A DNA stretch of 64,000 nt, taken from positions 1 to 64,000 of the IMG/VR virus record IMGVR_UViG_3300044957_000168, one strand, 5' to 3'. The position numbers were made by a program, and so were the translations under genes. This document shows positions 4,678 through 23,172 of the stretch, piece after piece (position 1 is the first letter of the stretch; each line of letters opens with the position of its first letter). The notes beneath the pieces are model-generated. The model made no database searches. It saw only the letters and a list, made by a program, of their open reading frames with translations, and was not told the DNA's origin. This stretch comes from a virus.

Positions 4678-4909
4678 CGGTGAAACCCTTAGCCAGTGGG
4701 CTGTAAAGCAGGCTAACTATATGCTCAATGACCGGTACAGACTGGTGCATCTGTCTAAGGACATGACAGCACCGTACCATACTGTTAGGAGGTTTGTTGC
4801 AGGGCATAATGTAGCACTTAAGATACAAGATAAGTTTATTTCATTATATTTGAGCCATGTATACGGTAATTACCCTGATCCCGATAGCATGGTGGCTCAC
4901 AGAATTTGA
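4649..4909 (+). CDS. Small protein of unknown function
   Basis: An 86-residue protein that overlaps the end of the SSB-like gene by 29 bases and the next membrane-protein gene by 53. The segment LSKDMTAPYHTVRRFVAGHN could be a helix-turn-helix-like DNA-contact region, but I cannot confirm it. Overlaps at both ends argue for real, tightly packed genes rather than chance, although one member of the overlapping set could be spurious. Confidence 0.5.
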   Translation: MKTLTIYLSDGETLSQWAVKQANYMLNDRYRLVHLSKDMTAPYHTVRRFVAGHNVALKIQDKFISLYLSHVYGNYPDPDSMVAHRI

Positions 4910-5084
4910 GCCTCTTCAAGCAACTATTGACCGCATCCCTATGTCTGCATGGCTGAGGGATGCATTCACTTGTGTGAAGTGTGTATCTTTTTGGCTTACT
5001 CTTATTGTTTCACTTGATTTTATACTAGCATGTCAGACAGCACTATTGGCTTACCTGTTGAGCAGAGTGATAGAGAGGTTGTAG
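4857..5084 (+). CDS. Small membrane protein with CxxC motif
   Basis: The 75-residue product has an N-terminal hydrophobic stretch (about residues 4-15) and a second, longer one (about 45-70), with CVKCVSFW just before the second. It would lie in the inner membrane as a two-pass protein. The pattern LRDAFTCVKCVSFW resembles small DUF1360-type membrane proteins, a weak match from memory. It overlaps both neighbours by about 50 bases. Confidence 0.45.
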   Translation: MYTVITLIPIAWWLTEFEPLQATIDRIPMSAWLRDAFTCVKCVSFWLTLIVSLDFILACQTALLAYLLSRVIERL

Positions 5085-5281
5085 ATAGAGTGCTATCTCT
5101 GCCTGCGTCACTGCGTTACTCTAAGCACTCACTTTCTCAACTGCTACAGATCAGGATCAAATACCAAGGACCACAGCCCTCAGAGTGTTTCTGTGCATCG
5201 GTGAGACGGAAGGTGTGGTACAAAGAATTTACTGTATGGTATGAAGACTATCTTAGACAAGTTGGTGTCACAACAGTATGA
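5030..5281 (+). CDS. Small protein of unknown function
   Basis: This 83-residue soluble protein has LSLPASLRYSKHSLSQLLQI and a C-terminal aromatic-basic stretch (RRKVWYKEFTVWYEDYL). I recognise no domain. It overlaps the preceding membrane-protein gene by 55 bases and the following sigma-like gene by 41. The composition looks like a folded protein. Confidence 0.5.
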   Translation: MSDSTIGLPVEQSDREVVDRVLSLPASLRYSKHSLSQLLQIRIKYQGPQPSECFCASVRRKVWYKEFTVWYEDYLRQVGVTTV

Positions 5282-5765
5282 GGAGCTCGAAGCCTATACT
5301 CACTACCTACTCAATAGGCTAGGCAGTCAGCTTGACGCTGCAACTGTTATATCTAATAGCTATCTGCACTGTGTTAAAATAGAATGCACTGACCAAAATA
5401 CCATGAAGAGCTATATGCTCAACACTATTAAGAAACAGATCATGTGGTCAGGCTCCCAAAGTAATAGAGAGGAGTCTATCAATAGCTCTTGTGATGAAGT
5501 AGAGGAAATAGATGATACAACTGACCTAGACAATAAAATCATGTATGAGAAGTTATACAACCGGAATAAGGCATACATAGAGATATACCGGTCTAGCTGT
5601 GAGGATAGAGTCAGTCAGATAGTACTTAGTGCTTATGTTGACAAGGGATACAACACAGCTCGGAGCATGGCAAAGTATTTTGACATCCCTGTTACCTCAG
5701 CTCACTACTTGATATCTCATATTAAACAAAAACTTCGTGAGATACAATATAAGTATGAGAATTAG
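5241..5765 (+). CDS. Sigma-factor-like / helix-turn-helix regulator
   Basis: A 174-residue protein with an N-terminal helical part resembling sigma-70 region 2 arrangement (YTHYLLNRLGSQLDAATVISNSYLHCV) and a C-terminal helix-turn-helix (ARSMAKYFDIPVTSAHYLISHIKQKLREI), like sigma region 4. Small sigma-like proteins of this type occur between replication and packaging genes in Bacteroidetes phages, where they may switch on late genes. Here too it precedes the terminase genes. The acidic linker EVEEIDDTTD separates the halves. Function is inferred from architecture only. Confidence 0.55.
   Translation: MKTILDKLVSQQYEELEAYTHYLLNRLGSQLDAATVISNSYLHCVKIECTDQNTMKSYMLNTIKKQIMWSGSQSNREESINSSCDEVEEIDDTTDLDNKIMYEKLYNRNKAYIEIYRSSCEDRVSQIVLSAYVDKGYNTARSMAKYFDIPVTSAHYLISHIKQKLREIQYKYEN
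5744..5757 (+). promoter_or_regulatory. Start-abutting repeat motif, copy 1
   Basis: ACAATATAAGTATG ends with the start codon of the small membrane-protein gene at 5755. The same 14 bases end at start codons at 8267 and 15309. This supports 5755 rather than the earlier in-frame ATG at 5737. Confidence 0.5.
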
Positions 5766-5940
5766 TCAACTCATAGCCACATGCTGTAACTTCTTAGGTA
5801 TCTTTACAGGTATCTCACTGCTGTGGCTTAACTATCAATGGGCCTGCTATAGCGCAGGATCTTGGATATTAGGATACTATTTATATTTAATTAGAGACGA
5901 ATATGAGCAAAAAAAAAATAACACCGAAGGTGAACCCTGA
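5755..5940 (+). CDS. Small membrane protein
   Basis: I chose the ATG at 5755 because it is preceded by the repeated start-context motif also found at 8267 and 15309. The 61-residue product has two hydrophobic segments (LIATCCNFLGIFTGISLLW and WILGYYLYLI) and a charged C terminus, so it should be an inner-membrane protein. No family is recognised. It overlaps the sigma-like gene and the next small gene, in keeping with the dense early-middle cluster. Confidence 0.5.
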   Translation: MRISQLIATCCNFLGIFTGISLLWLNYQWACYSAGSWILGYYLYLIRDEYEQKKNNTEGEP

Positions 5941-6088
5941 GTATTTGGGTCATACATTGGAGATTACAGGACCTAACAGCACTATGAAGGTAGTAGTAAC
6001 TGAAGCACTAGCCAAAGAGCACATTTATTACACTTCTATTGGCTTAGGTTATTTATTTATTGTTGAAGATGCCAAGACCGAGGATTAA
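5903..6088 (+). CDS. Small protein of unknown function
   Basis: The 61-residue product starts with a Lys run (MSKKK) and continues with a beta-rich pattern (LGHTLEITGPNSTMKVVVTE, then YYTSIGLGYLFIVE). I recognise no family. It overlaps the previous gene by 38 bases and the next by about 20. Confidence 0.5.
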   Translation: MSKKKITPKVNPEYLGHTLEITGPNSTMKVVVTEALAKEHIYYTSIGLGYLFIVEDAKTED

Positions 6089-6536
6089 TGAGACTGCTGA
6101 GCAGTACATCTCACGGTGTATGGCTGATGCTGAGACCATAGAGAAGTACCCAGATCAGGCACAACGGTATTTAGTGTGTGGGTCTATGTATGATACTCCT
6201 CTAGGTAACTATAAGAATGTGTTTGCTCAATCCTATGATGACTATCCTAAGGCTGCCTCGGACAATGCTAAGGTAGCTCTTAGATGGGTTGAAGAGAATG
6301 GATGGGGGCAGTGTGGCACAGGAGTAGGCAAAGCCAGAGCTAATCAGCTAGCCAAGGGTGAGCCACTTACTGAGAGTACCATTGCACGTATGGCAGGCTT
6401 TGCTAGGCACCGGCAGAATGCACAGAGAGAGCTCGGGGATGGATGTGGTAGGCTCATGTGGTTAGCATGGGGAGGTGATGAGGGGATAGCTTGGGCTCAA
6501 CGTAAACTAAAACAAATTAGAGGTGAGCAAAAATAA
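6069..6536 (+). CDS. Conserved phage protein (VGxARANQLAxGE motif)
   Basis: The 155-residue protein starts best at the ATG at 6069 (MPRPRINETAEQY); a TTG at 6060 would add three residues. It carries a motif set I know from many phage proteins: DNAKVALRWVEENGWGQCGT, GVGKARANQLAKGEPL, RMAGFARH and LMWLAWGGDEGIAWA. In some phages this domain is attached to XkdF-type capsid proteases; here it stands alone just before the terminase genes. Its biochemical role is unknown to me. It may be virion- or packaging-related. Confidence 0.6.
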   Translation: MPRPRINETAEQYISRCMADAETIEKYPDQAQRYLVCGSMYDTPLGNYKNVFAQSYDDYPKAASDNAKVALRWVEENGWGQCGTGVGKARANQLAKGEPLTESTIARMAGFARHRQNAQRELGDGCGRLMWLAWGGDEGIAWAQRKLKQIRGEQK

Positions 6537-6948
6537 GTACATAGAGACTCCTGAGGACCTACAGAGAATGTGGAAGGACTATAAAGCTCAGTTGCCTGTA
6601 GATTTAATACCTGTGCTATCAACTAAGACAGGTCAGGTAATGTTTCTGCCTACGCAAAAACCTCCTACAAGACATGGCTTTGAGGCCTATGTATGGGAAA
6701 AGTATGGCCATGGTGTGAAGCAGTACATAGATAACCAAGACAAAGCATATAATGAATATCTGGGAGTCGTTACGTACATAAAGAATGATTGGACCGATGA
6801 CCATATCACTGGCACTATGACCGGTAAGTACAAGTCACCCAACCTTACAGCAAGAATAATCGGAGTCAATGACAATGTGGATGTTACTACCAAGGGTCAG
6901 GCAATGAATGACATCAAGGTAACTATAGTAACACCTGACAGTGAATAA
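6523..6948 (+). CDS. Terminase small subunit (DNA-packaging gp3-like)
   Basis: This 141-residue protein starts with GTG inside the end of the previous gene. It shows the pattern of gp3-like small terminases: TPEDLQRMWKDYKA near the N terminus, PPTRHGFEAYVWEKYG, KDYIxx-like spacing to ITGTMTGKYKSPNLTARIIG, and an acidic end. Small terminases recognise the packaging start on phage DNA and load the large subunit, which is encoded 140 bases downstream. Position and motif agree, so confidence is good although no search was possible. Confidence 0.7.
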   Translation: MSKNKYIETPEDLQRMWKDYKAQLPVDLIPVLSTKTGQVMFLPTQKPPTRHGFEAYVWEKYGHGVKQYIDNQDKAYNEYLGVVTYIKNDWTDDHITGTMTGKYKSPNLTARIIGVNDNVDVTTKGQAMNDIKVTIVTPDSE

Positions 6949-7138
6949 TCAGATAGACTACATGGCATCGGTGGTTGAGCAGTACATGCTTAAAGTCAAA
7001 AGTAAAAAAGTCCGGATCAACAGAAGGCTAGTAGCAATGGATGCAAGGCAGTTGGTCATGCTATACAATGCCTACCGACAGATAGTACATGGAGTTAAAG
7101 AGCACGATTATATTTCAAAAGAACCACCAGGCACTTGA
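6941..7138 (+). CDS. Small basic protein between terminase genes
   Basis: A 65-residue protein that may start at GTG 6941 (overlapping the small terminase stop) or at ATG 6962. It is basic in the middle (KVKSKKVRINRRL) and helical at the end. It overlaps the large terminase gene by 50 bases. No family is recognised. Confidence 0.5.
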   Translation: MNNQIDYMASVVEQYMLKVKSKKVRINRRLVAMDARQLVMLYNAYRQIVHGVKEHDYISKEPPGT

Positions 7139-8237
7139 GGGTCCTGAGAGGTTTATAGTGAATGAGGGAGGGTCAAGGTCATCAAAGACCTACAGCCTAT
7201 GTCAGCTAATGATAGTGTACTGCCTGCAGAATAGAGGTAAGGTAGTATCTATTATACGTAAGACTTTCCCTGCATTAAGGGCAACAGTATTAAGAGACTT
7301 TACGAAGATACTCAAAGACCTTGGTATCTACTCTCAGGAAGCTCACAATAAGAGTGAGCAGATATACACCTTCCCCAATGGATCTATGGTGGAGTTTTTT
7401 AGTGTGGATGATGAGCAGAAGATCAGAGGTAGGAAGAGAGACATAGCATGGTGTAATGAGGCCAATGAGTTGTACTTCGATGACTTTACTCAGCTTAACA
7501 TGAGGACTGAGCACAAGCTAATCTTTGACTACAACCCATCGGACAACAGCTCGTGGCTGTATGAGTTACCTGCTGAGGATACCATACTGATCCGGTCCAC
7601 CTACAAGGATAACCCATTCCTACCTCAGTCCATCAAGAACCAGATAGAGGACCTGAAGAGAACGGATGAGGCACTGTATCAGATCTATGCCTTGGGTCAG
7701 AAGGCAGTAAGCAAGAGTAACATCTACAGCCAATGGACCTTTATGACTCACAGGCCTGCAAGGTTCACTCAGTACGTGTATGGCCTTGACTTTGGGTACA
7801 ACCACCCTACTGCACTGATGAGGGTGTATTGGCATGAGAGAGACATCTTCATTGAGCCTGTGATCTATGAGAGCTACCTGACCACCACCATGCTCATTGA
7901 GAAGATGAGACAGCTCAACATTGAGAGGGAGGTCACTATCTTAGCTGACTATTCAAGGCCTGAGATTATTGCCGAAATGGTGAGCAGTGGCTATGATGTC
8001 ATTAACGCTAACAAGGTGGTGAAAAAAGGCATTGATTACGTTAAGACCTTCGGAGTATACTGCATGGATAGCAAGGACATCAAGAGGGAGTATGACAACT
8101 ACAAGTGGAGAAAGATAGGCGACCACATTACGGATGAGCCGGTCAAGCTCTTTGATGATGCCATGGATGCTGTGAGGTATGCAGTCACCTACATCAAGGA
8201 TGAGTACTTTACTGACAGTGCATACATATCCTTCTAA
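7089..8237 (+). CDS. terL: Terminase large subunit (region A phage)
   Basis: The 382-residue protein fits PBSX-type large terminases. The ATPase half has a Walker A (GGSRSSKT, residues 27-34) and a Walker B region ending in the catalytic acid (RDIAWCNEAN, Glu near 124). The nuclease half has acidic residues in YGLDFGYNHPTA (Asp 234), ILADYSRPE (Asp 287) and FDDAMDAVRYAV (Asp 357/360), the usual RNase-H-like triad layout. It packages DNA through the portal. All key residues are present and the length is normal. The portal gene lies unusually far away, at 19,921. Confidence 0.92.
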   Translation: MELKSTIIFQKNHQALEGPERFIVNEGGSRSSKTYSLCQLMIVYCLQNRGKVVSIIRKTFPALRATVLRDFTKILKDLGIYSQEAHNKSEQIYTFPNGSMVEFFSVDDEQKIRGRKRDIAWCNEANELYFDDFTQLNMRTEHKLIFDYNPSDNSSWLYELPAEDTILIRSTYKDNPFLPQSIKNQIEDLKRTDEALYQIYALGQKAVSKSNIYSQWTFMTHRPARFTQYVYGLDFGYNHPTALMRVYWHERDIFIEPVIYESYLTTTMLIEKMRQLNIEREVTILADYSRPEIIAEMVSSGYDVINANKVVKKGIDYVKTFGVYCMDSKDIKREYDNYKWRKIGDHITDEPVKLFDDAMDAVRYAVTYIKDEYFTDSAYISF

Positions 8238-8254
8238 ACAGATGAGAACATTAA

Positions 8255-8269
8255 GACAATATAAGTATG
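8255..8269 (+). promoter_or_regulatory. Start-abutting repeat motif, copy 2
   Basis: GACAATATAAGTATG runs from 8255 into the ATG of the first tail gene (8267-8269). It is identical over 15 bases to the copy at 15297-15311. Confidence 0.5.
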
Positions 8270-9736
8270 GCAGTATCTCTAATAGCTAAACCCTACACCC
8301 TAACACCTGCATACAATGAGGTGAAGTTCATCCATGACTCTACCAACAAGAACCTGCAGGGATTTAAGTACATCTATGACATCTACCAGAGTGGTACAGT
8401 TAACAAGATAGCAGAGTATCGGGTGCTACCTGTGTATGGCACTGGCTATGGTGAGGTGGACCTATCCAAGCTATTGCAGTCCTATGTGAGCTATGACCTG
8501 AACCTGACCAATACAACGGTATACAATGCATCGAGCAGCCACTACAAGTATGATGTTAAGGTAGGAGAGGAGTACCTCACTACCACTACCTACACGGCTG
8601 CACTCACTCAGTACCTGCTAGCTCCCTACGTGGGTAGGGTACAGATTAACGTGGTTAACACCTTTGCAGTCGGTGACCAGATCAATATCACTGAGATAGG
8701 TGGTGGTGCAGCTAACCCAAGTATGGAGGGGCTATTCACTGTGGTGGTAGCTAACCCTGCCTTCATTGTGATCAATGTGCTGTACTCAACCATTGTGAAC
8801 CCTAATAAGGATGGAGAGATAACCTATGCAGATGGTAGGAGAACAGTGACTAGAGACCTACACCTTGACCTCAACCAATTTGTGTTCAATGGAGCTATAC
8901 GATGGGTAGATATGCCTGCATACAACTGGCAGGACTTCATGCTCAACAACGTGACTGACAGGCTACTGACCAACCAACCTGAAGGTATTACACACTTCAA
9001 TGCTACACTGTCTCAAGATATATGGTTCAACGCTGTGGCTAATGGAAGCCCAGGTGGTTCGGACTTTATGTATTTTGAAAGTGACATAGGGTTTGTATAC
9101 CGGAAGTCTATCAATGCTATTGACCATGTGAGTGGTATCTCTGTAGGTCCTAATAACCATGGTACCTTGATCCCTGTGGTAGGGTCATTGCCACTCATTA
9201 AGCCTACCACTCAGTACTATTATGTATATTATTACAGAGCAGGGCAGGTGTCACAGCACTACTACATCGGCATAGATAGGAGGGTGAGAGACATTGAGTA
9301 CAGCATCCTGTTTCTTGACCGTATGGGTTCATGGAGTAGCTTTGCCTTTACCGGTAGATTCTACGAGAAGGGCAACATCACTAGGACTCAATACAATAAG
9401 GATGTAGAGGGCTATGTCAGTAGTAGCCGATGGACCTACAACACACAGGATAGAGGCTTTCTAAACACTCACATCACAACGGACACCACCCTTGACCTAA
9501 ACACTAACTGGATGACAGAGCAGATGGCTGAGTACTTCGTGGAGTTGTTGAGTTCACCAGAGACCTACATCAAGATAGCTGACTACAGCAATGCCTGTGA
9601 TGCACCCATCAGCACTGAGTACGTGAGCTGTAACATAGTGACCTCAAGCTATGAGGTGTATCAGCAGAGGAACAACCATTTAATAAAGCAGAGCATTACG
9701 GTGAAGCTTGCAAACAACAACATAGTCAATGGTTAA
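8267..9736 (+). CDS. Putative tail/virion structural protein
   Basis: This 489-residue beta-rich protein (many short Thr/Tyr/Asn-rich strands) follows the terminase gene and precedes a still larger structural gene with which it overlaps by eight bases. I see no signal peptide, membrane segment or catalytic motif. The N terminus reads like a small beta-sandwich (AKPYTLTPAYNEVKFIHDST). By position and composition it is probably a tail or tail-tip protein. No family is recognised with certainty. Confidence 0.6.
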   Translation: MAVSLIAKPYTLTPAYNEVKFIHDSTNKNLQGFKYIYDIYQSGTVNKIAEYRVLPVYGTGYGEVDLSKLLQSYVSYDLNLTNTTVYNASSSHYKYDVKVGEEYLTTTTYTAALTQYLLAPYVGRVQINVVNTFAVGDQINITEIGGGAANPSMEGLFTVVVANPAFIVINVLYSTIVNPNKDGEITYADGRRTVTRDLHLDLNQFVFNGAIRWVDMPAYNWQDFMLNNVTDRLLTNQPEGITHFNATLSQDIWFNAVANGSPGGSDFMYFESDIGFVYRKSINAIDHVSGISVGPNNHGTLIPVVGSLPLIKPTTQYYYVYYYRAGQVSQHYYIGIDRRVRDIEYSILFLDRMGSWSSFAFTGRFYEKGNITRTQYNKDVEGYVSSSRWTYNTQDRGFLNTHITTDTTLDLNTNWMTEQMAEYFVELLSSPETYIKIADYSNACDAPISTEYVSCNIVTSSYEVYQQRNNHLIKQSITVKLANNNIVNG

Positions 9737-12584
9737 GATACAATTACTGACAGGCTACCTTGATGTCAAGGAAGGCACTGCCTTCCCATTGAACTTTCAA
9801 GTAGGTGACATTAGAGATATCTCACAACGGAAGGGTAATTTTAGTAAGACAATTAAGCTCATTGGTAGCAAGAATAACAATAAGCTCCTAGGTCAGTACT
9901 ATGATGTGAACATTGAGGCAGGTACCTTCAACATCAACACCTTGACTACCTGCTCTGTCATACAGGATGGCATCCCTATCATGGAGAATGTATCCATGCA
10001 GTTGACCAACGTGGTCAAGGTACAGGACACCTCTGGCTATGAGGAGTCAGTTGAGTATGATGTGCTCATCAAGGAGAGCAAGGGTGATTTCTTTACAGCT
10101 ATTAATAATCTTGAGCTGACAGATATAGACTTCAGTGACCTTAACCATACTTTTGATGCCTTTAATGTGGTCAACAGGTTCTCCAATACGGTAACTGATG
10201 GGTTCAAGTACAGCCTCCCTGGTAGTGGTGATGTGCAGTATGGTACTAATGAGTTCAAGCCTTGTATCTTTGCCAAGACTTACCTTGACCGTATCTTTGC
10301 TAATGCAGGCTATCAGTACAACTGGGCAGGGTTGACTGCTGCAAGATTTGACAGGCTCATCATCCCCTACAACGGTGATGTAGATAACTTTGACTACAAT
10401 GACTACATGGTCAAGGCTGAGAAGACCACACCATTTACTTTGACTGGTGACACCTCCGTGTCGGGATACACTAACATACCATTTGTACCAGGTTCACCCA
10501 TTACTGCATGGACTGAGACAGAGGACCCACAAAACATCTTCAACCCTGTGACAGGTGTCTACACTACACCGTTTAACATCAGCAGTAACAACGCACAGGA
10601 GTACACCTACACTGTTCAGATCCGGTACAGGCTTGACCTTATTAACCCTACCGGTGCTACCATATTTAGTGCCAAGCCCAACAACGGGGGTATACAAGCA
10701 CCTAACCCTGTTTTTTATAGACCGATATTGATAGTGCAGGGTTTAGGTGGAATCGGTAGTCCGTTTATTACGCAGGCACTATACACTAACCCTAACCCAC
10801 TGAGTGCTGCTGTCAACAACGGTGTGCAGTGCCCTCTTAGTGTTTTACCAGGTACTACTACGGTACTAAGTCAGACAGTTGTAGCTACATTGCCTGTAAC
10901 AACTCAGAACTTTCCACAGTTAAGTACTTGCAGGTTGTACGCAGTTGTTAACCAACCATACCATATCCCTGCAGGTCAGAGCCAAACAGGCACTTGCTGG
11001 AGGGTAGGTAGTATCTTTGGTGCCGCAGCTCCCAATGTCCGTCTTGACATGATCATTGACAGCGTCTACCTGACTATTGTGCCTAACAATAACATTGTAG
11101 CCATTGGTGGTATCTTGGAGGTCAATGACTATGTACCTAAGAAAATTAAGCAGAGTGACTTTGTAAAGGCCATATTCAATATGTTCAACCTGTATGCTGA
11201 GGTGGACAAGGTACAGCCTAACACCATCAACCTCATACACCGTGATGACTACTATGACTCAGGAGCTGAGGTTGACTGGACGTACAAGCTAGCCAAGGAC
11301 CAAGAGCAGGAGCTGTCATTTCTACCAGAGCTCACAAGTAAAAAGCTCATCCTTACCTATGCACCAGATAAGGATGCACCCAATGAGACCTACACCAATG
11401 CTACCAACCAGATTTATGGGCAGGCTGAGGTAGTTTTTGACAATGATTATGTCAAGGATGTAACTTTGAAGCCTGTACTGTTTAGTCCTACACCCATCAT
11501 GCGTACACCCTTCAATGCATACACACCTATACTATGTGGTGCAGCACCTAAGACTAACATCCGGATATTGTATGATGGTGGCATGAAAATTTGCAACCCT
11601 TACAATATCTATGATTATGGAGTGGTAGGTATGTTAGGACTTACAAGCTACCCATACGTGGGGCACTTCGATGACCCATTGCTACCTACCTTTGACATCA
11701 ACTTTGCAACCTGTGCCTTCTATTTCTACAGCCCTACAAGCCTAACAGAGAACAACCTCTACAACCGGTATTGGAGGCGCACAATGGGGCAGATTAACAA
11801 CGGTAAGATGTTGACTGCTATGTTTAACCTAACTGAGAGCGACATCCAAAAGATGAAGCTCAATGATAAGATAAGGATAGACAACAGTTGGTGGAACATC
11901 AACAAGGTCATTGACTACGATGCCAACGCTAACAAGCTTACCAAGGTGGAGCTCATTAGCATAGACAATGAGATAAATTTCATGCCCTTTGTTTCTGGCT
12001 TCAATGAGCCTGGGATAGGACTGCCTAATGTAGGACCTATTCAGCAAGTAGCTAACAACAGCATGATCAGGACTAAAAGCTCCTATTCCAACGTAACAGG
12101 CAACGGGGGTATGCAAGGTGAGATCATTGGTAAGGGCAACGTAGTGCCACCAGGATACAAGACACTGATAGTAGGTGATGGTTATCAGGTTACTCAGGAT
12201 GGTATAGTGGTAGACAATTTAGTAGTAAGAAGTAGCTACAACGGTGTGCCTGTTGACAATACACCACTAAGATACATTGCCAACCTCACACAGGCAGGTG
12301 CAGCAAATCCAACAGCCTACGTCATAGAGGGTAGCTTTGGCAGTATTACATGGATAAGGATAGCACAGGGGCAGTACTGGGGCTACCTTGATCAATATGA
12401 CCCACTGACACCACTCACTGAGCTATCAGTTATGATAAGCAGTAACATCTTGGATGGGCTTATCACTGCACAATACATAGCAGTTAAACAAGTAATAGAG
12501 GTGTTCACCACACAGGTAGGTGTGGGCTTGGTAGATGACTACCTCAATAGTACAACAATAATGATATATTACTATCCACAATAA
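9729..12584 (+). CDS. Large putative tail tip / receptor-binding protein
   Basis: A 951-residue protein with a beta-rich, Asn/Thr/Pro-rich composition and no enzyme motif that I recognise. The N-terminal ~130 residues (VKIQLLTGYLDVKEGTAFPL, then the NFSKTIKLIGSKNN region) look like a compact docking domain. The C-terminal region after about residue 770 (SMIRTKSSYSNVTGNGGMQG onward) looks like a separate beta domain. Placed between terminase and tape measure genes and overlapping the upstream structural gene, it most likely forms part of the tail tip or baseplate. Its last codon overlaps the tape measure start. Confidence 0.6.
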   Translation: MVKIQLLTGYLDVKEGTAFPLNFQVGDIRDISQRKGNFSKTIKLIGSKNNNKLLGQYYDVNIEAGTFNINTLTTCSVIQDGIPIMENVSMQLTNVVKVQDTSGYEESVEYDVLIKESKGDFFTAINNLELTDIDFSDLNHTFDAFNVVNRFSNTVTDGFKYSLPGSGDVQYGTNEFKPCIFAKTYLDRIFANAGYQYNWAGLTAARFDRLIIPYNGDVDNFDYNDYMVKAEKTTPFTLTGDTSVSGYTNIPFVPGSPITAWTETEDPQNIFNPVTGVYTTPFNISSNNAQEYTYTVQIRYRLDLINPTGATIFSAKPNNGGIQAPNPVFYRPILIVQGLGGIGSPFITQALYTNPNPLSAAVNNGVQCPLSVLPGTTTVLSQTVVATLPVTTQNFPQLSTCRLYAVVNQPYHIPAGQSQTGTCWRVGSIFGAAAPNVRLDMIIDSVYLTIVPNNNIVAIGGILEVNDYVPKKIKQSDFVKAIFNMFNLYAEVDKVQPNTINLIHRDDYYDSGAEVDWTYKLAKDQEQELSFLPELTSKKLILTYAPDKDAPNETYTNATNQIYGQAEVVFDNDYVKDVTLKPVLFSPTPIMRTPFNAYTPILCGAAPKTNIRILYDGGMKICNPYNIYDYGVVGMLGLTSYPYVGHFDDPLLPTFDINFATCAFYFYSPTSLTENNLYNRYWRRTMGQINNGKMLTAMFNLTESDIQKMKLNDKIRIDNSWWNINKVIDYDANANKLTKVELISIDNEINFMPFVSGFNEPGIGLPNVGPIQQVANNSMIRTKSSYSNVTGNGGMQGEIIGKGNVVPPGYKTLIVGDGYQVTQDGIVVDNLVVRSSYNGVPVDNTPLRYIANLTQAGAANPTAYVIEGSFGSITWIRIAQGQYWGYLDQYDPLTPLTELSVMISSNILDGLITAQYIAVKQVIEVFTTQVGVGLVDDYLNSTTIMIYYYPQ

Positions 12585-14845
12585 TGAATAGCGTAGAGAT
12601 ACCATTAAAGGTCCAAGGGATTGCACAGATACGAGCAGAGCTCAAGGCATTAAAGAGTGAGCTAGCCAATGCTACTGATCCTGAAGAGATGGCTAGACTT
12701 GCTGAGCAGGCAGGGGTGCTTAGTGATAAGTTGAAGGATGCCAATGAGAAGGCAGCAGTCTTTGCCACGGGCTCCAAGTATCAGCAGACTAGAAATGCAT
12801 TTAGCTCTATGAAGGATGACCTCATGGAGCTTGACTTTGAGGGAGCACAAGAGAAAGCTAAGATATTTGCTACCACCCTTGGCAGTGTCAACCCTGGTCA
12901 GCTCAGTAGTGGCTTTAAAAATCTTATGGGCACTCTTACTTCCTTAGGAGGTGCCTTTATGAAGTTAGGTATGCAGATATTGGTCAACCCTATCTTTTTG
13001 ATTGTGGCTGCAGTGGTGGCTATAGTAGCCATCATTGTTGTCTTAATGCAAAAATTTGGAATACTTCAAAAGGTAATAGATGCACTTATGGCACCGATCA
13101 ATGCACTCATTGCAGGTTTTGCAGCACTGACTGATTGGCTAGGAATAACTACCAATGCCTTGGATGAGAAACATGATACTGCGATGAAGCAATTAGAAGC
13201 AGAGGACAAGAGACTGCAAGCCGCTAATGAGCTCAAGCAACAAGTGTATACTCAAGAGGTAGGAGCTATAGATAGACAGATAGCTCTTGCTGCTGCACAG
13301 GGTAAGGATACAACTGAGCTGACAAGGAAAAAAATTCATGGATCTATCACGTTTCAAAAACAACAACTTAAAGAAATAGAAAATCAGATAAAATCAGTCG
13401 CAGTAACACTAGCAGAAACCGAAGCATTGAACGCTAAGAAAAAAGCTCAAGGTCAGGAGGTAGATTTACAGGATCAGGAGAAGTTACAGAAAAAATTAAA
13501 CGAGTTAAAAAATCAAAGAGTGCAGGTCAATGAGTCTATTTTGAACAGTGAAAATCAACTGAAAATAATGGATGCTGAGGCTGCAAAAAAATTAAGAGAA
13601 AAAGCAAACAAAACAGGTAGCAAAAAAGATATAGAAGCAGCAGGCAAGGCTGAACTTGATTTAAAAAGAGCACAAAAGGATCAAGAAATAGCTATGATAC
13701 AAGATGCTAATCTTCGTGAACAAGAAACCATAAAAGAAAAATATAAAAGATTACAAGAGGACCTAAAAACTGATAGCAAAAAAACTGCTGCTCAAAAGAT
13801 AGAATATGAAAAACTCTACCAACAACAACTGACCGTAGAGTTAGAAACAGCAGAAAAAAACCGTAAAAAAATTGAGCAAGAAAATCTTATTAAGGCTAAT
13901 GAAATGATCAACCAATTACGGTTAGAACTCATGCCTGAAGGTGCTAATAAAGAGAAGGCCATGCAGGATGACAAGTATCGTAAACTACGTGAGGCCGCTA
14001 TTGCTGATACCACACTTACTGAGGAGAAGAGGAATGAGATACTTGACCTGTATGATGAGCAACGTAAAATGGAGGATGAGGCTAAAATAAAGGCAGATCA
14101 AGATATTAAAGATGAGTTTGCGAGAAACTTTGCCCTATCTCAAATGACTCAATCAGAACAGGAGCTTGAAGCATTGAGAGTCAAGTATGAAGAGGAGCGT
14201 AAACTAGCAGAGGGCAATGCTGCTCTATTGCTAGAAATGGAGGAGAAATACAAAAATGATAGAAAAAAGATACTAGATGCTCAGACATTGGCAGCCATTG
14301 AAGAGAAGACAAAAGAACGTGATGCCATCATTAGCTTGACCAATGACATCTTTGGTGGTGTCAGTAACCTGGCCGGTATGATGATCAAGGACCAAAAGAA
14401 ACTTGAGAAATTTAACAAGGCCTCTGCACTCATTCAGATAGGTATTGACACAGCCAAGGCTATCTCTGCATTGGTTGCTGCATCTCAGGCTAACCCATTA
14501 AATGCTGCTACATTTGGTGCTTCAGGTTTTGCACAATTCGCTACGGGTATTATTCAGATTTTGACTAACATTGCCAAGGCTAAGCAGATACTGTCTTCAG
14601 GAGGTGCAGCTACACCTTCAGGTGGTGGTGGTGGTGGTGGTGGTCAAAGTGGTACTGGCTCAGCAGCTCAGGTTATACCACAGGCAGCACAACTGTTTGG
14701 TCAAGGTAACACTGGAGGCATTAAGAATGCAGGAGGTACAGTTACTGAGAACTCAGGCATGACAGTCACGGCGGTGGTGAGTGAGACAGCTATGACAACC
14801 GTACAGAACAGAATAAACAGAATAAACAAGAATGCAGAGCTATGA
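12584..14845 (+). CDS. Tail tape measure protein
   Basis: The 753-residue protein has the tape-measure pattern. There is an N-terminal coiled-coil part and a hydrophobic segment around residues 140-160 (FLIVAAVVAIVAIIVVLM). Long Lys/Glu/Gln-rich coiled coil runs from about 190 to 580. A Gly/Ala-rich membrane-active C-terminal part follows (FNKASALIQIGIDTAKAISA and nearby), with an eight-Gly run. Such proteins set the tail length and help DNA cross the cell envelope. Its presence makes region A a long-tailed, siphovirus-like phage. The coiled-coil core (about 13,340-13,900) is noticeably AT-rich compared with its flanks. Confidence 0.8.
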   Translation: MNSVEIPLKVQGIAQIRAELKALKSELANATDPEEMARLAEQAGVLSDKLKDANEKAAVFATGSKYQQTRNAFSSMKDDLMELDFEGAQEKAKIFATTLGSVNPGQLSSGFKNLMGTLTSLGGAFMKLGMQILVNPIFLIVAAVVAIVAIIVVLMQKFGILQKVIDALMAPINALIAGFAALTDWLGITTNALDEKHDTAMKQLEAEDKRLQAANELKQQVYTQEVGAIDRQIALAAAQGKDTTELTRKKIHGSITFQKQQLKEIENQIKSVAVTLAETEALNAKKKAQGQEVDLQDQEKLQKKLNELKNQRVQVNESILNSENQLKIMDAEAAKKLREKANKTGSKKDIEAAGKAELDLKRAQKDQEIAMIQDANLREQETIKEKYKRLQEDLKTDSKKTAAQKIEYEKLYQQQLTVELETAEKNRKKIEQENLIKANEMINQLRLELMPEGANKEKAMQDDKYRKLREAAIADTTLTEEKRNEILDLYDEQRKMEDEAKIKADQDIKDEFARNFALSQMTQSEQELEALRVKYEEERKLAEGNAALLLEMEEKYKNDRKKILDAQTLAAIEEKTKERDAIISLTNDIFGGVSNLAGMMIKDQKKLEKFNKASALIQIGIDTAKAISALVAASQANPLNAATFGASGFAQFATGIIQILTNIAKAKQILSSGGAATPSGGGGGGGGQSGTGSAAQVIPQAAQLFGQGNTGGIKNAGGTVTENSGMTVTAVVSETAMTTVQNRINRINKNAEL
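14621..14644 (+). repeat. (GGT)8 microsatellite in the tape measure gene
   Basis: Eight perfect GGT units encode a Gly run near the C terminus of the tape measure protein. Slippage would change the Gly count in multiples of three bases without breaking the frame. Confidence 0.85.
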
Positions 14846-15279
14846 TCAGTCTACAGTCCACCATCAACAAGATAACAGCTTTCTACAAGTCTCACCTCCA
14901 GGTCAAAAAGGTAGGAGCAGACTTTAAGGAACAGATGACTAACTTTGCCACTAAGGATGAGAAGTATCCTATAGTGTTCATAGTACCGGTAACAGTAAGT
15001 AACACAGAAAATACCAACATTTACACGCTTGACATCTACTGCTTTGATATCATTCAAAAGGATAGGGCTAACATTATTACCATTCTGAGTGATACGCATC
15101 AAATACTCATGGACCTGTACAACTATTTTACCTTCAGCAAGGACTTGAGCATGGATATTATACAAATACCTTCCTTTACAGCACTGAACAATGACCTTCT
15201 TGACTATGCTGCAGGCTATGTAATGACCATTACCTTAGAGGTATCTAATTGGACTGATTGCGATGTGCCGCTACAATAA
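14842..15279 (+). CDS. Putative tail terminator/completion protein
   Basis: This 145-residue alpha/beta protein overlaps the tape measure stop by four bases. The C-terminal YVMTITLEVSNWTDCDVPLQ and the middle IYTLDIYCFDIIQKDR fit the small tail-terminator or minor-tail proteins seen in Bacteroidetes phages. No catalytic motif is visible. Assignment is by position and pattern. Confidence 0.5.
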   Translation: MISLQSTINKITAFYKSHLQVKKVGADFKEQMTNFATKDEKYPIVFIVPVTVSNTENTNIYTLDIYCFDIIQKDRANIITILSDTHQILMDLYNYFTFSKDLSMDIIQIPSFTALNNDLLDYAAGYVMTITLEVSNWTDCDVPLQ

Positions 15280-15296
15280 ACATTTAAGCGAGCTTT

Positions 15297-15311
15297 GACA
15301 ATATAAGTATG
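15297..15311 (+). promoter_or_regulatory. Start-abutting repeat motif, copy 3
   Basis: GACAATATAAGTATG matches the copy at 8255-8269 base for base. It ends on an ATG (15309-15311) that opens only 12 codons before TAG, immediately followed by the ATG of the 15348 gene. Confidence 0.5.
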
Positions 15312-15347
15312 AGCATACCACTGTGTGTATCCCAAAAAATTTATTAG
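15309..15347 (+). other. 12-codon leader ORF or amber-interrupted start
   Basis: ATG at 15309 reads MSIPLCVSQKIY and stops at TAG 15345-15347. The next base begins the in-frame ATG of the downstream gene. The strong repeated start motif precedes the first ATG, not the second. It may be a leader peptide with stop-restart translation, or a gene whose 13th codon became amber. Confidence 0.4.
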
Positions 15348-15800
15348 ATGGGAAGATATAAAAAGGATGGTAATTTCTATGTCAAGTATCCTACTAGGAG
15401 AAAGATGGCAGCGCTACTTAGGAGAATAATTATGAGCAAGGGGCTCTATCAAGAGGGCACATTGGTTGACTCGGTGCGTATCAATGCAATGGTTACTGGG
15501 TTTGCTAAGCTAGAGATAGAAATTATTGCTATGTATTACTTCATCTTCCTTAACAATGGAGCCTTTCTGTGGAATGGTGGAGTAATACCACCCTATGACA
15601 TTGTGAGTGACTTCACGGATCAAATGAATAGCAGTGGACTTACTTCAGAGATATACTCACAATACACTGAATGGGTTACGCAAAATTACCCATTACTTCA
15701 AGCTGTTGAGGTATTAGCTAAGGATCAGAAGATAGTATACAAGTTTGTACCTATTGATCCCCCTTCAGGGTTCACTGTTGGTAGCCCGTTAGATGTCTAG
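15348..15800 (+). CDS. Putative tail-completion / head-tail joining protein
   Basis: The 150-residue protein has a basic N terminus (MGRYKKDGNF, YPTRRKMAALLRR). A central hydrophobic pair of strands with FIFLNNGAFLWNGG follows. This layout is seen in small virion proteins of the HK97 gp10-like type, where a Phe/Leu-Asn-Gly turn sits mid-protein. I am not certain of the family. It ends 12 bases inside the convergent minus-strand gene, so the two transcription units meet tail to tail. Confidence 0.45.
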   Translation: MGRYKKDGNFYVKYPTRRKMAALLRRIIMSKGLYQEGTLVDSVRINAMVTGFAKLEIEIIAMYYFIFLNNGAFLWNGGVIPPYDIVSDFTDQMNSSGLTSEIYSQYTEWVTQNYPLLQAVEVLAKDQKIVYKFVPIDPPSGFTVGSPLDV

Positions 15801-16523
15801 CTCTTTTTTCATACCAAGCATATTAAAAACATAGTACAGGGGTAGCCCTCCTATGGCATCGGACTTGGATAGGTCACCATTGCACAGGTTGTAGATGAGT
15901 AGCTCCCATGACCACTTGGCTGTGTTTTTCTCAGGCTCTTTGTTAGGCTCACCATCCTCATCCTCATAGCCTTGCTCAGGTTCAGGTGGTAGAGGGTCCT
16001 CAAATAGGTTTATGTAGGTATTAAGAAAATGCTCACGAAACTTAAGAAAGTCCTTAATAACACCATACACATCAGTGATGGGTACATCCATCAGCCTCTC
16101 AGCTCTAATTTTGCAGTCATATTCATAGGGCTCCCACACTACCTCGCCCCATTCATTCTCTTTGGTTTGCCGGTACAGGATAGCACAGATGTAGGGTAGG
16201 TTAATTAGGTATCCTTGTATGCAGAAGTAGTCCAGGTCAATATACTCATATAGCGTGAGCTTACTAAATGGCTTAATAATCATCCCATTCAACTCTTGCT
16301 TGTAATTTTTTGAAGGTTCAGAGGTGGACCACTTACAGTCATCCACCAACTGCTGAAGCTCTTCAATGTCCAAGTTATCCACATCAATATCACTGAGGAT
16401 ACTAATGACCTCACTGTTGTAGTGAATAGCTCCCTGCTGCTTATCAATCTTGGCTATCTCCGTCCACTCCTCCAGAGTTATTTCCTTCCAACTTGTTGGG
16501 AGCTTGTTTTTTAATCTTTTCAC
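15789..16523 (-). CDS. Tail-assembly-chaperone-like protein (downstream member of pair)
   Basis: This 244-residue minus-strand protein starts at GTG 16523 inside the 3' end of the upstream gene (80-base overlap). The pattern WKEITLEEWTEIAKI, then ELQQLVDDCKW, then ITI-like KLTLYEYIDLDYFCIQGYLI is shared by a Bacteroidetes phage family I associate with tail assembly. Its N-terminal layout matches that of the upstream protein. A flexible Pro/Glu-rich linker (about residues 178-202) separates a final helical part. A run AAAAAAC at the start of the overlap could allow a -2 or +1 ribosomal shift from the upstream frame, as tail chaperone pairs often do. Confidence 0.5.
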   Translation of the reverse strand: MKRLKNKLPTSWKEITLEEWTEIAKIDKQQGAIHYNSEVISILSDIDVDNLDIEELQQLVDDCKWSTSEPSKNYKQELNGMIIKPFSKLTLYEYIDLDYFCIQGYLINLPYICAILYRQTKENEWGEVVWEPYEYDCKIRAERLMDVPITDVYGVIKDFLKFREHFLNTYINLFEDPLPPEPEQGYEDEDGEPNKEPEKNTAKWSWELLIYNLCNGDLSKSDAIGGLPLYYVFNMLGMKKELDI

Positions 16524-17007
16524 TTATGAATGTTATGTATGGAATAGCAAGTGCTGCAGGTTGTTTAGCCAACCACTTAGATTTATATTTTAAATGTGCA
16601 TCAGTGTAGTGCTCCACAGGTCCAAGGTCCTCACGCTTAAAAAAAACAGCCAATATCTTAGATAAGTATCCCTTTTCCTTGGCTATTGAGTACTTCTCTA
16701 TAAGTTTGGTATCTCTCACGGTCATTTTCATTTGAGCCTTATAGGTATATCCTTCATGCTCCAGAGTATCAATGGTAGGGTACTCTAGATGTGGATGGTT
16801 GTTAAACTCCTGAACCACCTTGATAAAGTCCTCTACATCCATGTCATTAAAGTAATTTTCAGGTATCCCAAGGTACTCAAAAATCTTGAGGTGTTTTTCA
16901 ATAGGGTCAAGGGTAGTGTCACTGCCCAGATCAGTGATATTTTCAAATTGCTCCACCGTGAGCTCAGTAATTAGGTTAGGGATTTCTCTGTCAAGTATTT
17001 TAATCAT
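16444..17007 (-). CDS. Tail-assembly-chaperone-like protein (upstream member of pair)
   Basis: I chose ATG at 17007 (MIKILDREIPNLITELTVEQ); an earlier in-frame GTG at 17064 would collide with the divergent gene at 17049. The 187-residue protein reads LTVEQFENITDL, then a helical region with IPENYFNDMDVEDFIKVV, and ends Gly/Asp-rich. The same arrangement appears in the downstream minus-strand gene, so the two may be paralogues. Position between tape measure and capsid genes and the overlapping pair fit tail-assembly chaperones. The minus orientation within a + strand late module is odd. Confidence 0.5.
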   Translation of the reverse strand: MIKILDREIPNLITELTVEQFENITDLGSDTTLDPIEKHLKIFEYLGIPENYFNDMDVEDFIKVVQEFNNHPHLEYPTIDTLEHEGYTYKAQMKMTVRDTKLIEKYSIAKEKGYLSKILAVFFKREDLGPVEHYTDAHLKYKSKWLAKQPAALAIPYITFISEKIKKQAPNKLEGNNSGGVDGDSQD

Positions 17008-17021
17008 CTGAAAATTTTGAA

Positions 17022-17029
17022 CAAATATA
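17022..17029 (-). promoter_or_regulatory. Possible -7 box for the minus-strand pair
   Basis: On the minus strand this reads TATATTTG, matching the Bacteroidetes -7 element 15 bases before the 17007 start. No convincing -33 TTTG is found at the right distance, so this is weak. Confidence 0.3.
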
Positions 17030-17048
17030 GAAAAAAAACAATATAAAC

Positions 17049-17993
17049 GTGACCGAGTTACCAATTTACATTATTACCATTGACCCTGAGTATGCAGAAG
17101 GTGATGAAGAACTAGGTATTGAAACTATTGCCTTTACATCTAAGCCTGCAATAAAAGTTAAAGGAATGGCCTTCCAGCAACAGACTAAGGCATTAGCTTT
17201 CAAAGATGGGTTGAAATACCGTATAACTGCACCTGCTATGATACCTATGGAGATCTATCGTAGGGATGATGATACGAATGAGGAGTTTATAGTTAAGTTT
17301 ACGGTTGACGAAATAGATGCAATGCATTCTAAATTCATGCAGCAGTTAGTTAATTCTGCTAAATTCAACCTTGAACACAATGAAGAGAAAAAAGTACCAG
17401 CCTATATCCTTGAGGCATGGTTAGTAGATAAGCCTGAGCTTGACAAAGCATACGCAACCTATGGTATTGAGGTGCCAACCGGTACGTTGATGCTAACAGC
17501 TCAAATAACTGATGTCGACTACTACAATAAACTGGTTAAAGAGGACCAGGTTGGGTTCAGTATTGAGGGCTTTATGGGGATGAAACTAAAATCTAAATAT
17601 AACATGCAATTACCTGATGGAGAGCACCTCATTGAGGGCAAAATCTACGTGGTCAAGGATGGCCAAGTAGTAGAAATTAAAGAGCAACTTATAGAAACCA
17701 CAGAGGAGGAAGTAGCAATGGCTGACACCGTAGTAGAAGAGGAAGAGGAAGTTAAAGAAGAGGTGCAGGCTGCTGTTGACCCTACCATAGATGCTGAGGC
17801 TATACTTGCTATAGTGCAACCGGTACTAACTGAGCAGATCAATGCAGTACTATCTATAGTAGCTGAGCTTAAAAGTCAATTAGAGGAGGTTCTTGGAGCT
17901 GAGACTGAGGAGAAAGAGGAGACTGTTGAGATAGATGCTAAGACTATGCTCGCTGAGAACCTAAGAAAGTTTAACCAATTTAATAATAAATAA
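17049..17993 (+). CDS. XkdF-type prohead protease fused to scaffold-like tail
   Basis: The 314-residue protein starts with GTG. Residues 1-200 fit the XkdF-like phage serine protease family (Peptidase_S78_2): an N-terminal IYIITIDPEYAEGDEELG, a candidate catalytic His in AKFNLEHN, and Ser in QVGFSIEGFMG. From about residue 215 on, the protein is very acidic and coiled-coil (EEEEEVKEEV, then QPVLTEQINAVLSIVAEL), as expected of an internal scaffold. The protease would mature the prohead and remove the scaffold. It lies two bases before the major capsid gene, which agrees with that role. Confidence 0.8.
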   Translation: MTELPIYIITIDPEYAEGDEELGIETIAFTSKPAIKVKGMAFQQQTKALAFKDGLKYRITAPAMIPMEIYRRDDDTNEEFIVKFTVDEIDAMHSKFMQQLVNSAKFNLEHNEEKKVPAYILEAWLVDKPELDKAYATYGIEVPTGTLMLTAQITDVDYYNKLVKEDQVGFSIEGFMGMKLKSKYNMQLPDGEHLIEGKIYVVKDGQVVEIKEQLIETTEEEVAMADTVVEEEEEVKEEVQAAVDPTIDAEAILAIVQPVLTEQINAVLSIVAELKSQLEEVLGAETEEKEETVEIDAKTMLAENLRKFNQFNNK

Positions 17994-19528: not shown

Positions 19529-19566
19529 TTCTGAACATTCTACGTAAGGTCAGACAATATCTTTAG

Positions 19567-23160: not shown

Positions 23161-23172
23161 ATAGTATATTTG
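23161..23172 (+). promoter_or_regulatory. Candidate promoter of the region B packaging operon
   Basis: ATAGTATATTTG contains the Bacteroidetes -7 box TATATTTG (23165-23172) 22 bases before the first region B start codon and after a strong terminator. No TTTG is found at 19-21 bases upstream. Similar (T)TAGTATATTT sequences occur at 46321 and 61051. Confidence 0.5.

What the first reader, a model, noticed from the sequence alone, without database searches (positions are those of the whole stretch)
5744..15311. 14-15 base motif ending exactly on start codons
ACAATATAAGTATG occurs at 5744-5757, 8258-8269 (GACAATATAAGTATG from 8255) and 15298-15311 (from 15297), always with ATG as its last three bases. 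Looser variants precede 17049 (ACAATATAAACGTG) and 19567 (ACAATATCTTTAGATG). It marks the first tail gene and other late genes, so it may be a late-gene translation signal or a promoter for nearly leaderless mRNAs.
Basis: seen in the sequence. Interest (0 to 1): 0.6.

Follow-up and report, generated by a model that had tools for sequence, protein, structure and literature searches.

The report
Phage sigma-factor late promoters at start codons
The repeated motif is the right half of a two-part promoter that a large family of uncultured Bacteroidota viruses places directly against the start codons of its late genes, most likely so that a small sigma factor encoded by the virus can switch those genes on from mRNAs with almost no leader.

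Summary
ACAATATAAGTATG occurs exactly three times in 64 kb, always ending on an ATG; shuffled sequence gives none.

It is only half of the signal. AAACA lies exactly 17 bp upstream of AATATA at all three copies, and GAACA 16 bp upstream at the GTG at 17049. In up to about 100 distinct related phage sequences the layout AACA-N16-[CT]AATATA-[AG]GT-ATG recurs at four places: P1 (101/103), P2 (96/97), P3 (61/63) and P4 (33/34). That is sigma-type promoter architecture.

P1 lies inside the last codons of a 174-aa gene (5241-5765). Only the promoter bases there are frozen at synonymous sites (107/107). That gene resembles an ECF sigma factor by fold and weakly by HMM.

In some clades the ATG has moved 1-12 nt downstream while the motif stayed, and position -3 is G. 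This argues against a translation signal. A host-type promoter (TATATTTG) 4-5 nt before an ATG heads the sigma operon.

Best reading: late promoters of a phage-encoded ECF-like sigma, probably giving leaderless mRNAs. Phages 7-11 and phiEco32 are the precedent. New variant of a known kind; 5' ends unmapped.

The parts
4845..4852 (+). Host-type (Bacteroidota sigma-A) -7 element TATATTTG, 4 nt before the ATG at 4857; probable promoter of the sigma operon, predicted leaderless
   Evidence: TATATTTG 395-427 nt upstream of the sigma gene and 2-5 nt before an ATG in about 94 of 107 distinct relatives; PMC6847099 places TSS 4-5 nt after TANNTTTG
4857..5084 (+). First small gene of the sigma operon (75 aa)
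   Evidence: ORF; start adjoins the host-type -7 element
5030..5281 (+). Second small gene of the sigma operon (83 aa)
5241..5765 (+). ECF-like sigma factor candidate (174 aa; region-2-like N-terminal half, HTH region-4-like C-terminal half)
   Evidence: orthologues in 299 viral loci
5724..5728 (+). P1 upstream (-35-like) box AAACA, inside the sigma gene
5746..5751 (+). P1 downstream (-10-like) box AATATA (ACAATATAAGTATG 5744-5757), inside the sigma gene; ATG 5755
5755..5940 (+). First gene after P1: 61-aa protein conserved in relatives
   Evidence: 127 loci
8236..8240 (+). P2 upstream box AAACA
8258..8263 (+). P2 downstream box AATATA (motif 8256-8269); ATG 8267
8267..9736 (+). First gene after P2: 489-aa probable tail protein (by position; no family hit), directly after the large terminase 7089-8237
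15278..15282 (+). P3 upstream box AAACA
15300..15305 (+). P3 downstream box AATATA (motif 15298-15311); ATG 15309 opens a 12-codon remnant of a gene deleted in this record
17019..17023 (+). P4 upstream box GAACA, overlapping a leftward host-type TATATTTG (17029-17022, - strand)
17040..17045 (+). P4 downstream box AATATA (spacer 16); GTG start 17049
17049..17993 (+). First gene after P4: probable head maturation protease, followed by major capsid (17995) and portal (19921)
19533..19561 (+). Weak fifth site: GAACA, spacer 18, AATATC, before ATG 19567; a clear site (CATTATAGTC-ATG) precedes the orthologue in L256

Best explanation
The motif is the -10-like half of a bipartite late promoter, A-AACA-N16-[CT]AATATA-[AG]G-T-A. 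It is most likely read by host RNA polymerase carrying the phage's own ECF-like sigma factor (5241-5765). A host sigma-A promoter at 4845 makes the sigma operon early. The sigma then fires P1 (in its own 3' end), P2, P3 and P4, which stand before packaging-side, tail, receptor-binding-type and head genes. The start codon sits 3 nt after AATATA, so transcripts probably begin at or within a few nt of the A of the ATG and are translated leaderless. SHOWN by sequence: the two boxes, the fixed spacing, conservation at four loci, selection on DNA at P1, and ATG adjacency. SUPPORTED by fold and weak profile hits: the sigma identity. INFERRED: that this sigma reads these promoters, the timing, and the exact 5' ends.
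For: Three exact copies with AAACA 17 bp upstream of AATATA; 0.055 bipartite sites expected in shuffles. Across 20 relatives a loose bipartite pattern gives 94 hits on the coding strand and 16 on the other. Of 262 distinct sites with spacing 16-19, 229 have exactly 17. By orthologous position: P1 101/103, P2 96/97, P3 61/63, P4 33/34. At P1, inside the sigma CDS, Lys AAA 107/107, Gln CAA 96/96 and 107/107 and Tyr TAT 107/107, against in-gene usage of 0.35, 0.26 and 0.35, while spacer codons vary. At P2 the AAACA spacing survives two different C-terminal endings of the terminase (F-stop and FKNK-stop), so it is not coding constraint. Sigma: ECF NCBIfam models hit several members at best E about 3e-4; two AlphaFold models (pLDDT 80-81) retrieve almost only sigma factors from PDB and annotated phage sigma factors from BFVD (best annotated E 1.4e-4). 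A clade with only 33% sigma identity keeps the layout with CATTATA-type boxes before four starts. Internal calibration: TATATTTG 4-5 nt before the first ATG of the sigma operon fits a TSS on the ATG (PMC6847099).
Against: No transcript data. Pfam does not recognise the sigma candidate, Foldseek E-values are 1.6e-3 to 7e-3 at best in PDB, and pTM is 0.40-0.43. Spacing for a leaderless start is short: TAATAT ends 4 nt before ATG against 6-7 bp in Deinococcus (PMC12340547), and the phage sigma promoters of PMC8948821 have TSS 6-9 nt from the element, which could put the TSS inside the ORF. Related sequences are not independent events. Host RNA polymerase with a host alternative sigma could in principle read the motif.
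Confidence: 0.78

Rival explanations
1. Same bipartite phage-sigma promoter, but transcripts start a few nt inside the ORF or upstream; the ATG next to it is served by read-through mRNA and the messages are not leaderless.
For: TSS geometry of the phage sigma promoters in PMC8948821 (6-9 nt downstream of the element) would put +1 up to about 6 nt inside the ORF.
Against: Four non-homologous genes have their conserved start codon placed 3 nt after the box, and where it moved it is almost always downstream. The family also places a host-type -7 element exactly one TSS distance from an ATG. A promoter that excludes the start codon of the gene it abuts would make little sense at four loci.
Confidence: 0.2
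2. A translation-enhancing element (Kozak-like, A-rich) fixed to start codons of late genes.
For: Always ends on a start codon in the window; A at -6 agrees with the Flavobacterium preference (PMC6847099); Bacteroidota lack Shine-Dalgarno signals.
Against: The conserved unit extends to an AAACA box about 31 nt upstream with fixed spacing. ATG is displaced to 4, 5 or 13-15 nt in some clades while the motif stays. -3 is G in 64% of motif starts, against A in 47% of other starts.
Confidence: 0.07
3. Promoter read by a host alternative sigma or by an unrecognised phage polymerase rather than by the 174-aa protein.
For: The pairing of sigma and promoter is by synteny and architecture only; no binding data.
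Against: The sigma candidate is present in essentially every relative and its 3' end carries P1. Boxes differ from host sigma-A TTTG/TANNTTTG and from the F. psychrophilum sigma-ECF CGT box (PMC9723704). No RNA polymerase gene was recognised among the window's phage genes that were profiled (not every gene was profiled).
Confidence: 0.12
4. Chance or duplicated DNA without function.
For: The bare 14-mer is found in many unrelated AT-rich viral contigs, where the AACA partner is present at about chance level outside the family.
Against: Shuffles, synonymous-site freezing, conservation at four loci; flanks and spacers are unrelated between copies, so they are not duplicated segments.
Confidence: 0.01

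Closest known systems
Salmonella phage 7-11 sigma gp47 and its late promoters (PMC8948821)
   Same: Small phage-encoded sigma directs host RNAP to bipartite promoters (GTAAtg-16-aCTA) before late genes; spacer 16 as here
   Different: No detectable sequence relation; box sequences differ; different host group; start-codon adjacency not described in the passages read
phiEco32 sigma gp36 middle/late promoters (tAATGTAtA; PMC8948821)
   Same: Phage sigma; core box tAATGTA resembles tAATATA
   Different: Single-element promoters, no -35 box and no sigma region 4; here both are present
Deinococcus-Thermus '-10 region adjacent to ORF' leaderless genes (PMC12340547)
   Same: -10 box a few bp before the ATG, mRNA without leader
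   Different: Host primary sigma, TANNNT 6-7 bp before ORF, -35 optional; here phage sigma candidate, strict -35-like box, 4 nt
Bacteroidota sigma-A promoters TTTG/TANNTTTG (PMC6847099, PMC9723704)
   Same: Host group; used by this phage family before the sigma operon, 4-5 nt from ATG
   Different: Late motif lacks TTTG and has AAACA instead of TTTG upstream

Membership tests
Phage-encoded ECF-like sigma with its own late promoters (7-11 gp47 type) | Encodes a sigma-like protein with region 2 and region 4 | tested here: met
   Fold searches return almost only sigma factors; weak ECF NCBIfam hits; Pfam silent
Phage-encoded ECF-like sigma with its own late promoters (7-11 gp47 type) | Bipartite boxes about 16-17 bp apart upstream of several late genes | tested here: met
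Phage-encoded ECF-like sigma with its own late promoters (7-11 gp47 type) | Sequence homology to a phage sigma in the annotated phage collection | tested here: not met
   tblastn, no match at E<=0.1 in 50,697 phage records; works like, not a demonstrated member
Phage-encoded ECF-like sigma with its own late promoters (7-11 gp47 type) | Sigma plus host core transcribes the promoters; TSS mapped | not testable with these tools
   needs bench work
Leaderless genes with ORF-adjacent -10 box | -10 box at a fixed few bp before the start codon | tested here: met
   3 nt after AATATA at P1 101/101, P2 64/96, P3 45/61, P4 20/33
Leaderless genes with ORF-adjacent -10 box | Spacing of 6-7 bp as in Deinococcus | tested here: not met
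   4 nt from TAATAT, 3 nt from AATATA
Leaderless genes with ORF-adjacent -10 box | mRNA 5' end at the start codon | not testable with these tools
   no transcript data
Bacteroidota Kozak-like translation initiation region | A at -3 | tested here: not met
   G 64% and A 23% at -3 of motif starts; A 47% at other starts
Bacteroidota sigma-A promoter | TANNTTTG -7 element | tested here: not met
   AATATA[AG]G at the late sites; TATATTTG is found before the sigma operon and leftward at P4

The most novel reading that the evidence does not exclude
A whole family of Bacteroidota phages runs its lytic programme on leaderless mRNAs: an early host-sigma promoter fused to an ATG makes a minimal ECF-like sigma, whose own last codons encode the first late promoter, and all late promoters are fused to start codons, so transcription start and translation start coincide by design.
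Probability: 0.5. Interest if true: 0.75.

Novelty: new variant of a known kind. Interest (0 to 1): 0.56.

Why it matters
It gives a sequence-level transcription programme (early host promoter, phage sigma, four late promoters) for a large family of uncultured Bacteroidota phages (over 400 terminase-bearing stretches). If the late mRNAs are leaderless it would show a phage relying on leaderless translation in hosts that have no Shine-Dalgarno signals and where only about 5% of mapped mRNAs are leaderless (PMC9723704). The sigma-promoter pair is also a compact candidate orthogonal expression tool for Bacteroidota, and the promoter buried in the sigma gene is a clean case of selection on synonymous sites.

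Tried and rejected
Bare 14-mer as a diagnostic: rejected, because it hits 120 or more viral contigs, mostly unrelated. Single-subunit (T7-like) RNAP promoter, suggested by TATAGG in relatives: rejected, since a second box 17 bp upstream implies a sigma layout and no polymerase gene was seen in the genes profiled. Translation signal: rejected on -3 base, moving ATG and distal box. Prophage/host context: only one GTDB contig matched, itself 29.6 kb and probably a phage, so no host was identified. Nearest isolated phages (Bacteroides BC669P3, BF1-2, terminase about 33%): the genes before their terminase gave no sigma hit in NCBIfam and the regions printed showed no such motif on reading. PDB sequence search with the sigma profile: no usable hit. 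A partially conserved TA dinucleotide a few nt before the -10-like box: seen at P2/P3, absent at P1, left open.

Full report
CHECK. The 14-mer ACAATATAAGTATG is present exactly three times on the + strand of the window, at 5744, 8256 and 15298, each ending in ATG, and nowhere else in the 91.6-kb viral record. Dinucleotide shuffles of the 22.9-kb phage part give none. The looser copies at 17038 and 19554 are as described.

THE SIGNAL HAS TWO PARTS. Reading upstream of each copy shows AAACA, 17 nt, AATATA at 5724-5751, 8236-8263 and 15278-15305, and GAACA, 16 nt, AATATA at 17019-17045. Expected AACA-N16-[CT]AATATA sites in shuffles of the same sequence: 0.055; found 3 (+ strand) and 0 (- strand). 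The site at 19533 (spacer 18, AATATC) is weak.

RELATIVES. Terminase and tail-gene searches found 454 and 67 viral stretches encoding relatives, the longest on contigs mostly of 24-32 kb. Upstream of the tail gene the motif reads [CT]AATATA[AG]GT-ATG with AAACA at constant distance, in clades whose terminase ends differently (F-stop versus FKNK-stop), so the spacing is not a by-product of coding. By orthologous position the -10-like box is found at P1 in 101 of 103 distinct regions, P2 96/97, P3 61/63, P4 33/34; the P1, P2 and P4 exceptions and one of the two at P3 belong to one divergent clade (L256/L339/L340). At P3 the exact AACA-N16 partner was found in 46 of the 61; at P4 the spacing is 15 (AACA) or 16 (ACA). 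Of 262 distinct bipartite sites 229 have the 17-nt spacing. After thinning to 42 sites under 80% identity the spacer is largely uninformative while both boxes, and the following G and G/T positions, are not (the boxes themselves were required by the search pattern, so their full invariance there is by construction, but searches are anchored on genes instead). Rows are related sequences, not independent events.

SELECTION ON DNA AT P1. P1 lies within the last 13 codons of the gene 5241-5765. In 107 distinct orthologues the codons covering AAACA and CAATATA never vary at synonymous positions (AAA 107/107, CAA 96/96 of the Gln codons, CAA 107/107, TAT 107/107), although the same genes use AAA, CAA and TAT for only 35, 26 and 35% of Lys, Gln and Tyr elsewhere; codons in the spacer vary freely. 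Something reads these bases as nucleic acid.

WHO READS IT. The gene 5241-5765 encodes 174 aa, is in essentially all relatives, and looks like a minimal ECF sigma factor: two helical halves with an HTH at the C-terminus; several members hit ECF NCBIfam models at best E of about 3e-4; the best PDB folds of two models from different members are almost all sigma factors, including M. tuberculosis sigma-L and E. coli sigma-E; BFVD gives annotated phage sigma factors. Pfam is silent and pTM is low (0.40-0.43), probably because the two halves are loosely joined, so the identification is good but not proof. That this sigma reads P1-P4 is inferred from synteny, universal co-occurrence and promoter architecture. 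In the divergent clade with 33% sigma identity, four starts carry CATTATA- or CATAATA-type boxes with a G[AT]AC-type box 16-17 nt upstream (read by eye), consistent with sigma and promoter drifting together; this is suggestive only.

PROMOTER, NOT TRANSLATION SIGNAL. In several clades the ATG of the P2 gene is 13-15 nt after the box, and at P4 it is 4 or 5 nt, while the box and its GGT tail stay. Position -3 is G in 64% of motif starts; other starts in the same genomes, and the published Flavobacterium preference, favour A (PMC6847099).

LEADERLESS? At P1 all, and at P2-P4 most, start codons begin exactly 3 nt after AATATA. If the ATG is on the transcript the leader must be zero to a few nt. 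A useful internal calibration is the host-type element TATATTTG that precedes the first gene of the sigma operon (window 4845; ATG 4857): it sits 2-5 nt, mostly 4-5 nt, before an ATG in about 94 of 107 relatives, exactly the element-to-TSS distance measured in F. johnsoniae (PMC6847099). So the family appears to use a start-codon-fused promoter of the host type too. Against it, known phage sigma promoters start 6-9 nt downstream of the element (PMC8948821) and Deinococcus leaderless boxes stand 6-7 bp away (PMC12340547), so here the distance is short by about 2 nt or more. I put leaderless or near-leaderless at roughly two in three, given that it is a promoter.

MODEL. Host RNA polymerase makes the sigma operon early (4845). 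The sigma then directs RNA polymerase to P1 (reading out of its own gene into 5755 and terminase), P2 (tail), P3 (a variable receptor-binding-type gene in relatives) and P4 (protease, capsid, portal). At P4 the upstream box overlaps a leftward host-type TATATTTG (17029-17022), so the late sigma might also compete with a leftward promoter; this is inference. Host phylum Bacteroidota is itself inferred, from the TATATTTG elements and from the nearest isolated phages by terminase.

KNOWN OR NEW. Phage sigma factors with own late promoters are known (7-11 gp47 with GTAAtg-16-aCTA; phiEco32 gp36 with tAATGTAtA; PMC8948821), and ORF-adjacent -10 boxes are known in Deinococcus-Thermus (PMC12340547). 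I found no report of such a sigma-promoter set in Bacteroidota phages, nor of late promoters systematically fused to start codons, in the papers searched (subscription journals are missing). Hence: new variant of a known kind.

CAVEATS. No cultured member, no host, no transcript data. The record is probably a chimera: everything matching this phage family ends near 22.9 kb, GC drops from about 41 to 32%, and a Crassvirus capsid gene lies at 32178-33794. In this record the gene behind P3 is deleted, so the third copy in the window fronts only 12 codons.

Noticed in passing
window 22900-64000: GC falls from about 41% to 32% and homology to the ~29-kb phage family stops; a Crassvirus major capsid gene (32178-33794) shows the rest is a crAss-like phage. 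The 91.6-kb record is probably a chimeric assembly.
   Followed up: partly
window 15298-15350: Compared with L123/L125, a stretch of roughly 0.7-0.9 kb holding a receptor-binding-type gene (MSIPNWWGDW...) and most of a small following gene is missing; a 12-codon fusion remains. Real deletion or assembly error.
   Followed up: partly
window 4845-4857: Host-type TATATTTG 4 nt before an ATG, conserved in relatives: a predicted leaderless early promoter for the sigma operon.
   Followed up: yes
window 15789-17064 (- strand): Two conserved leftward genes sit inside the late rightward block; their host-type -7 element TATATTTG overlaps the upstream box of P4.
   Followed up: partly
L256, L259, L339, L340: Divergent clade (sigma about 33% identical) keeps the start-codon-fused layout with CATTATAG-TC-ATG style boxes; possible case of sigma-promoter coevolution.
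   Followed up: partly
family-wide, a few nt before the -10-like box: A TA dinucleotide is conserved at P2 and P3 (about 0.95 bit in the pooled logo) but absent at P1; meaning unknown.
   Followed up: no
window 23165-23172: Host-type promoter element TATATTTG before the first gene of the crAss-like part (23195).
   Followed up: no
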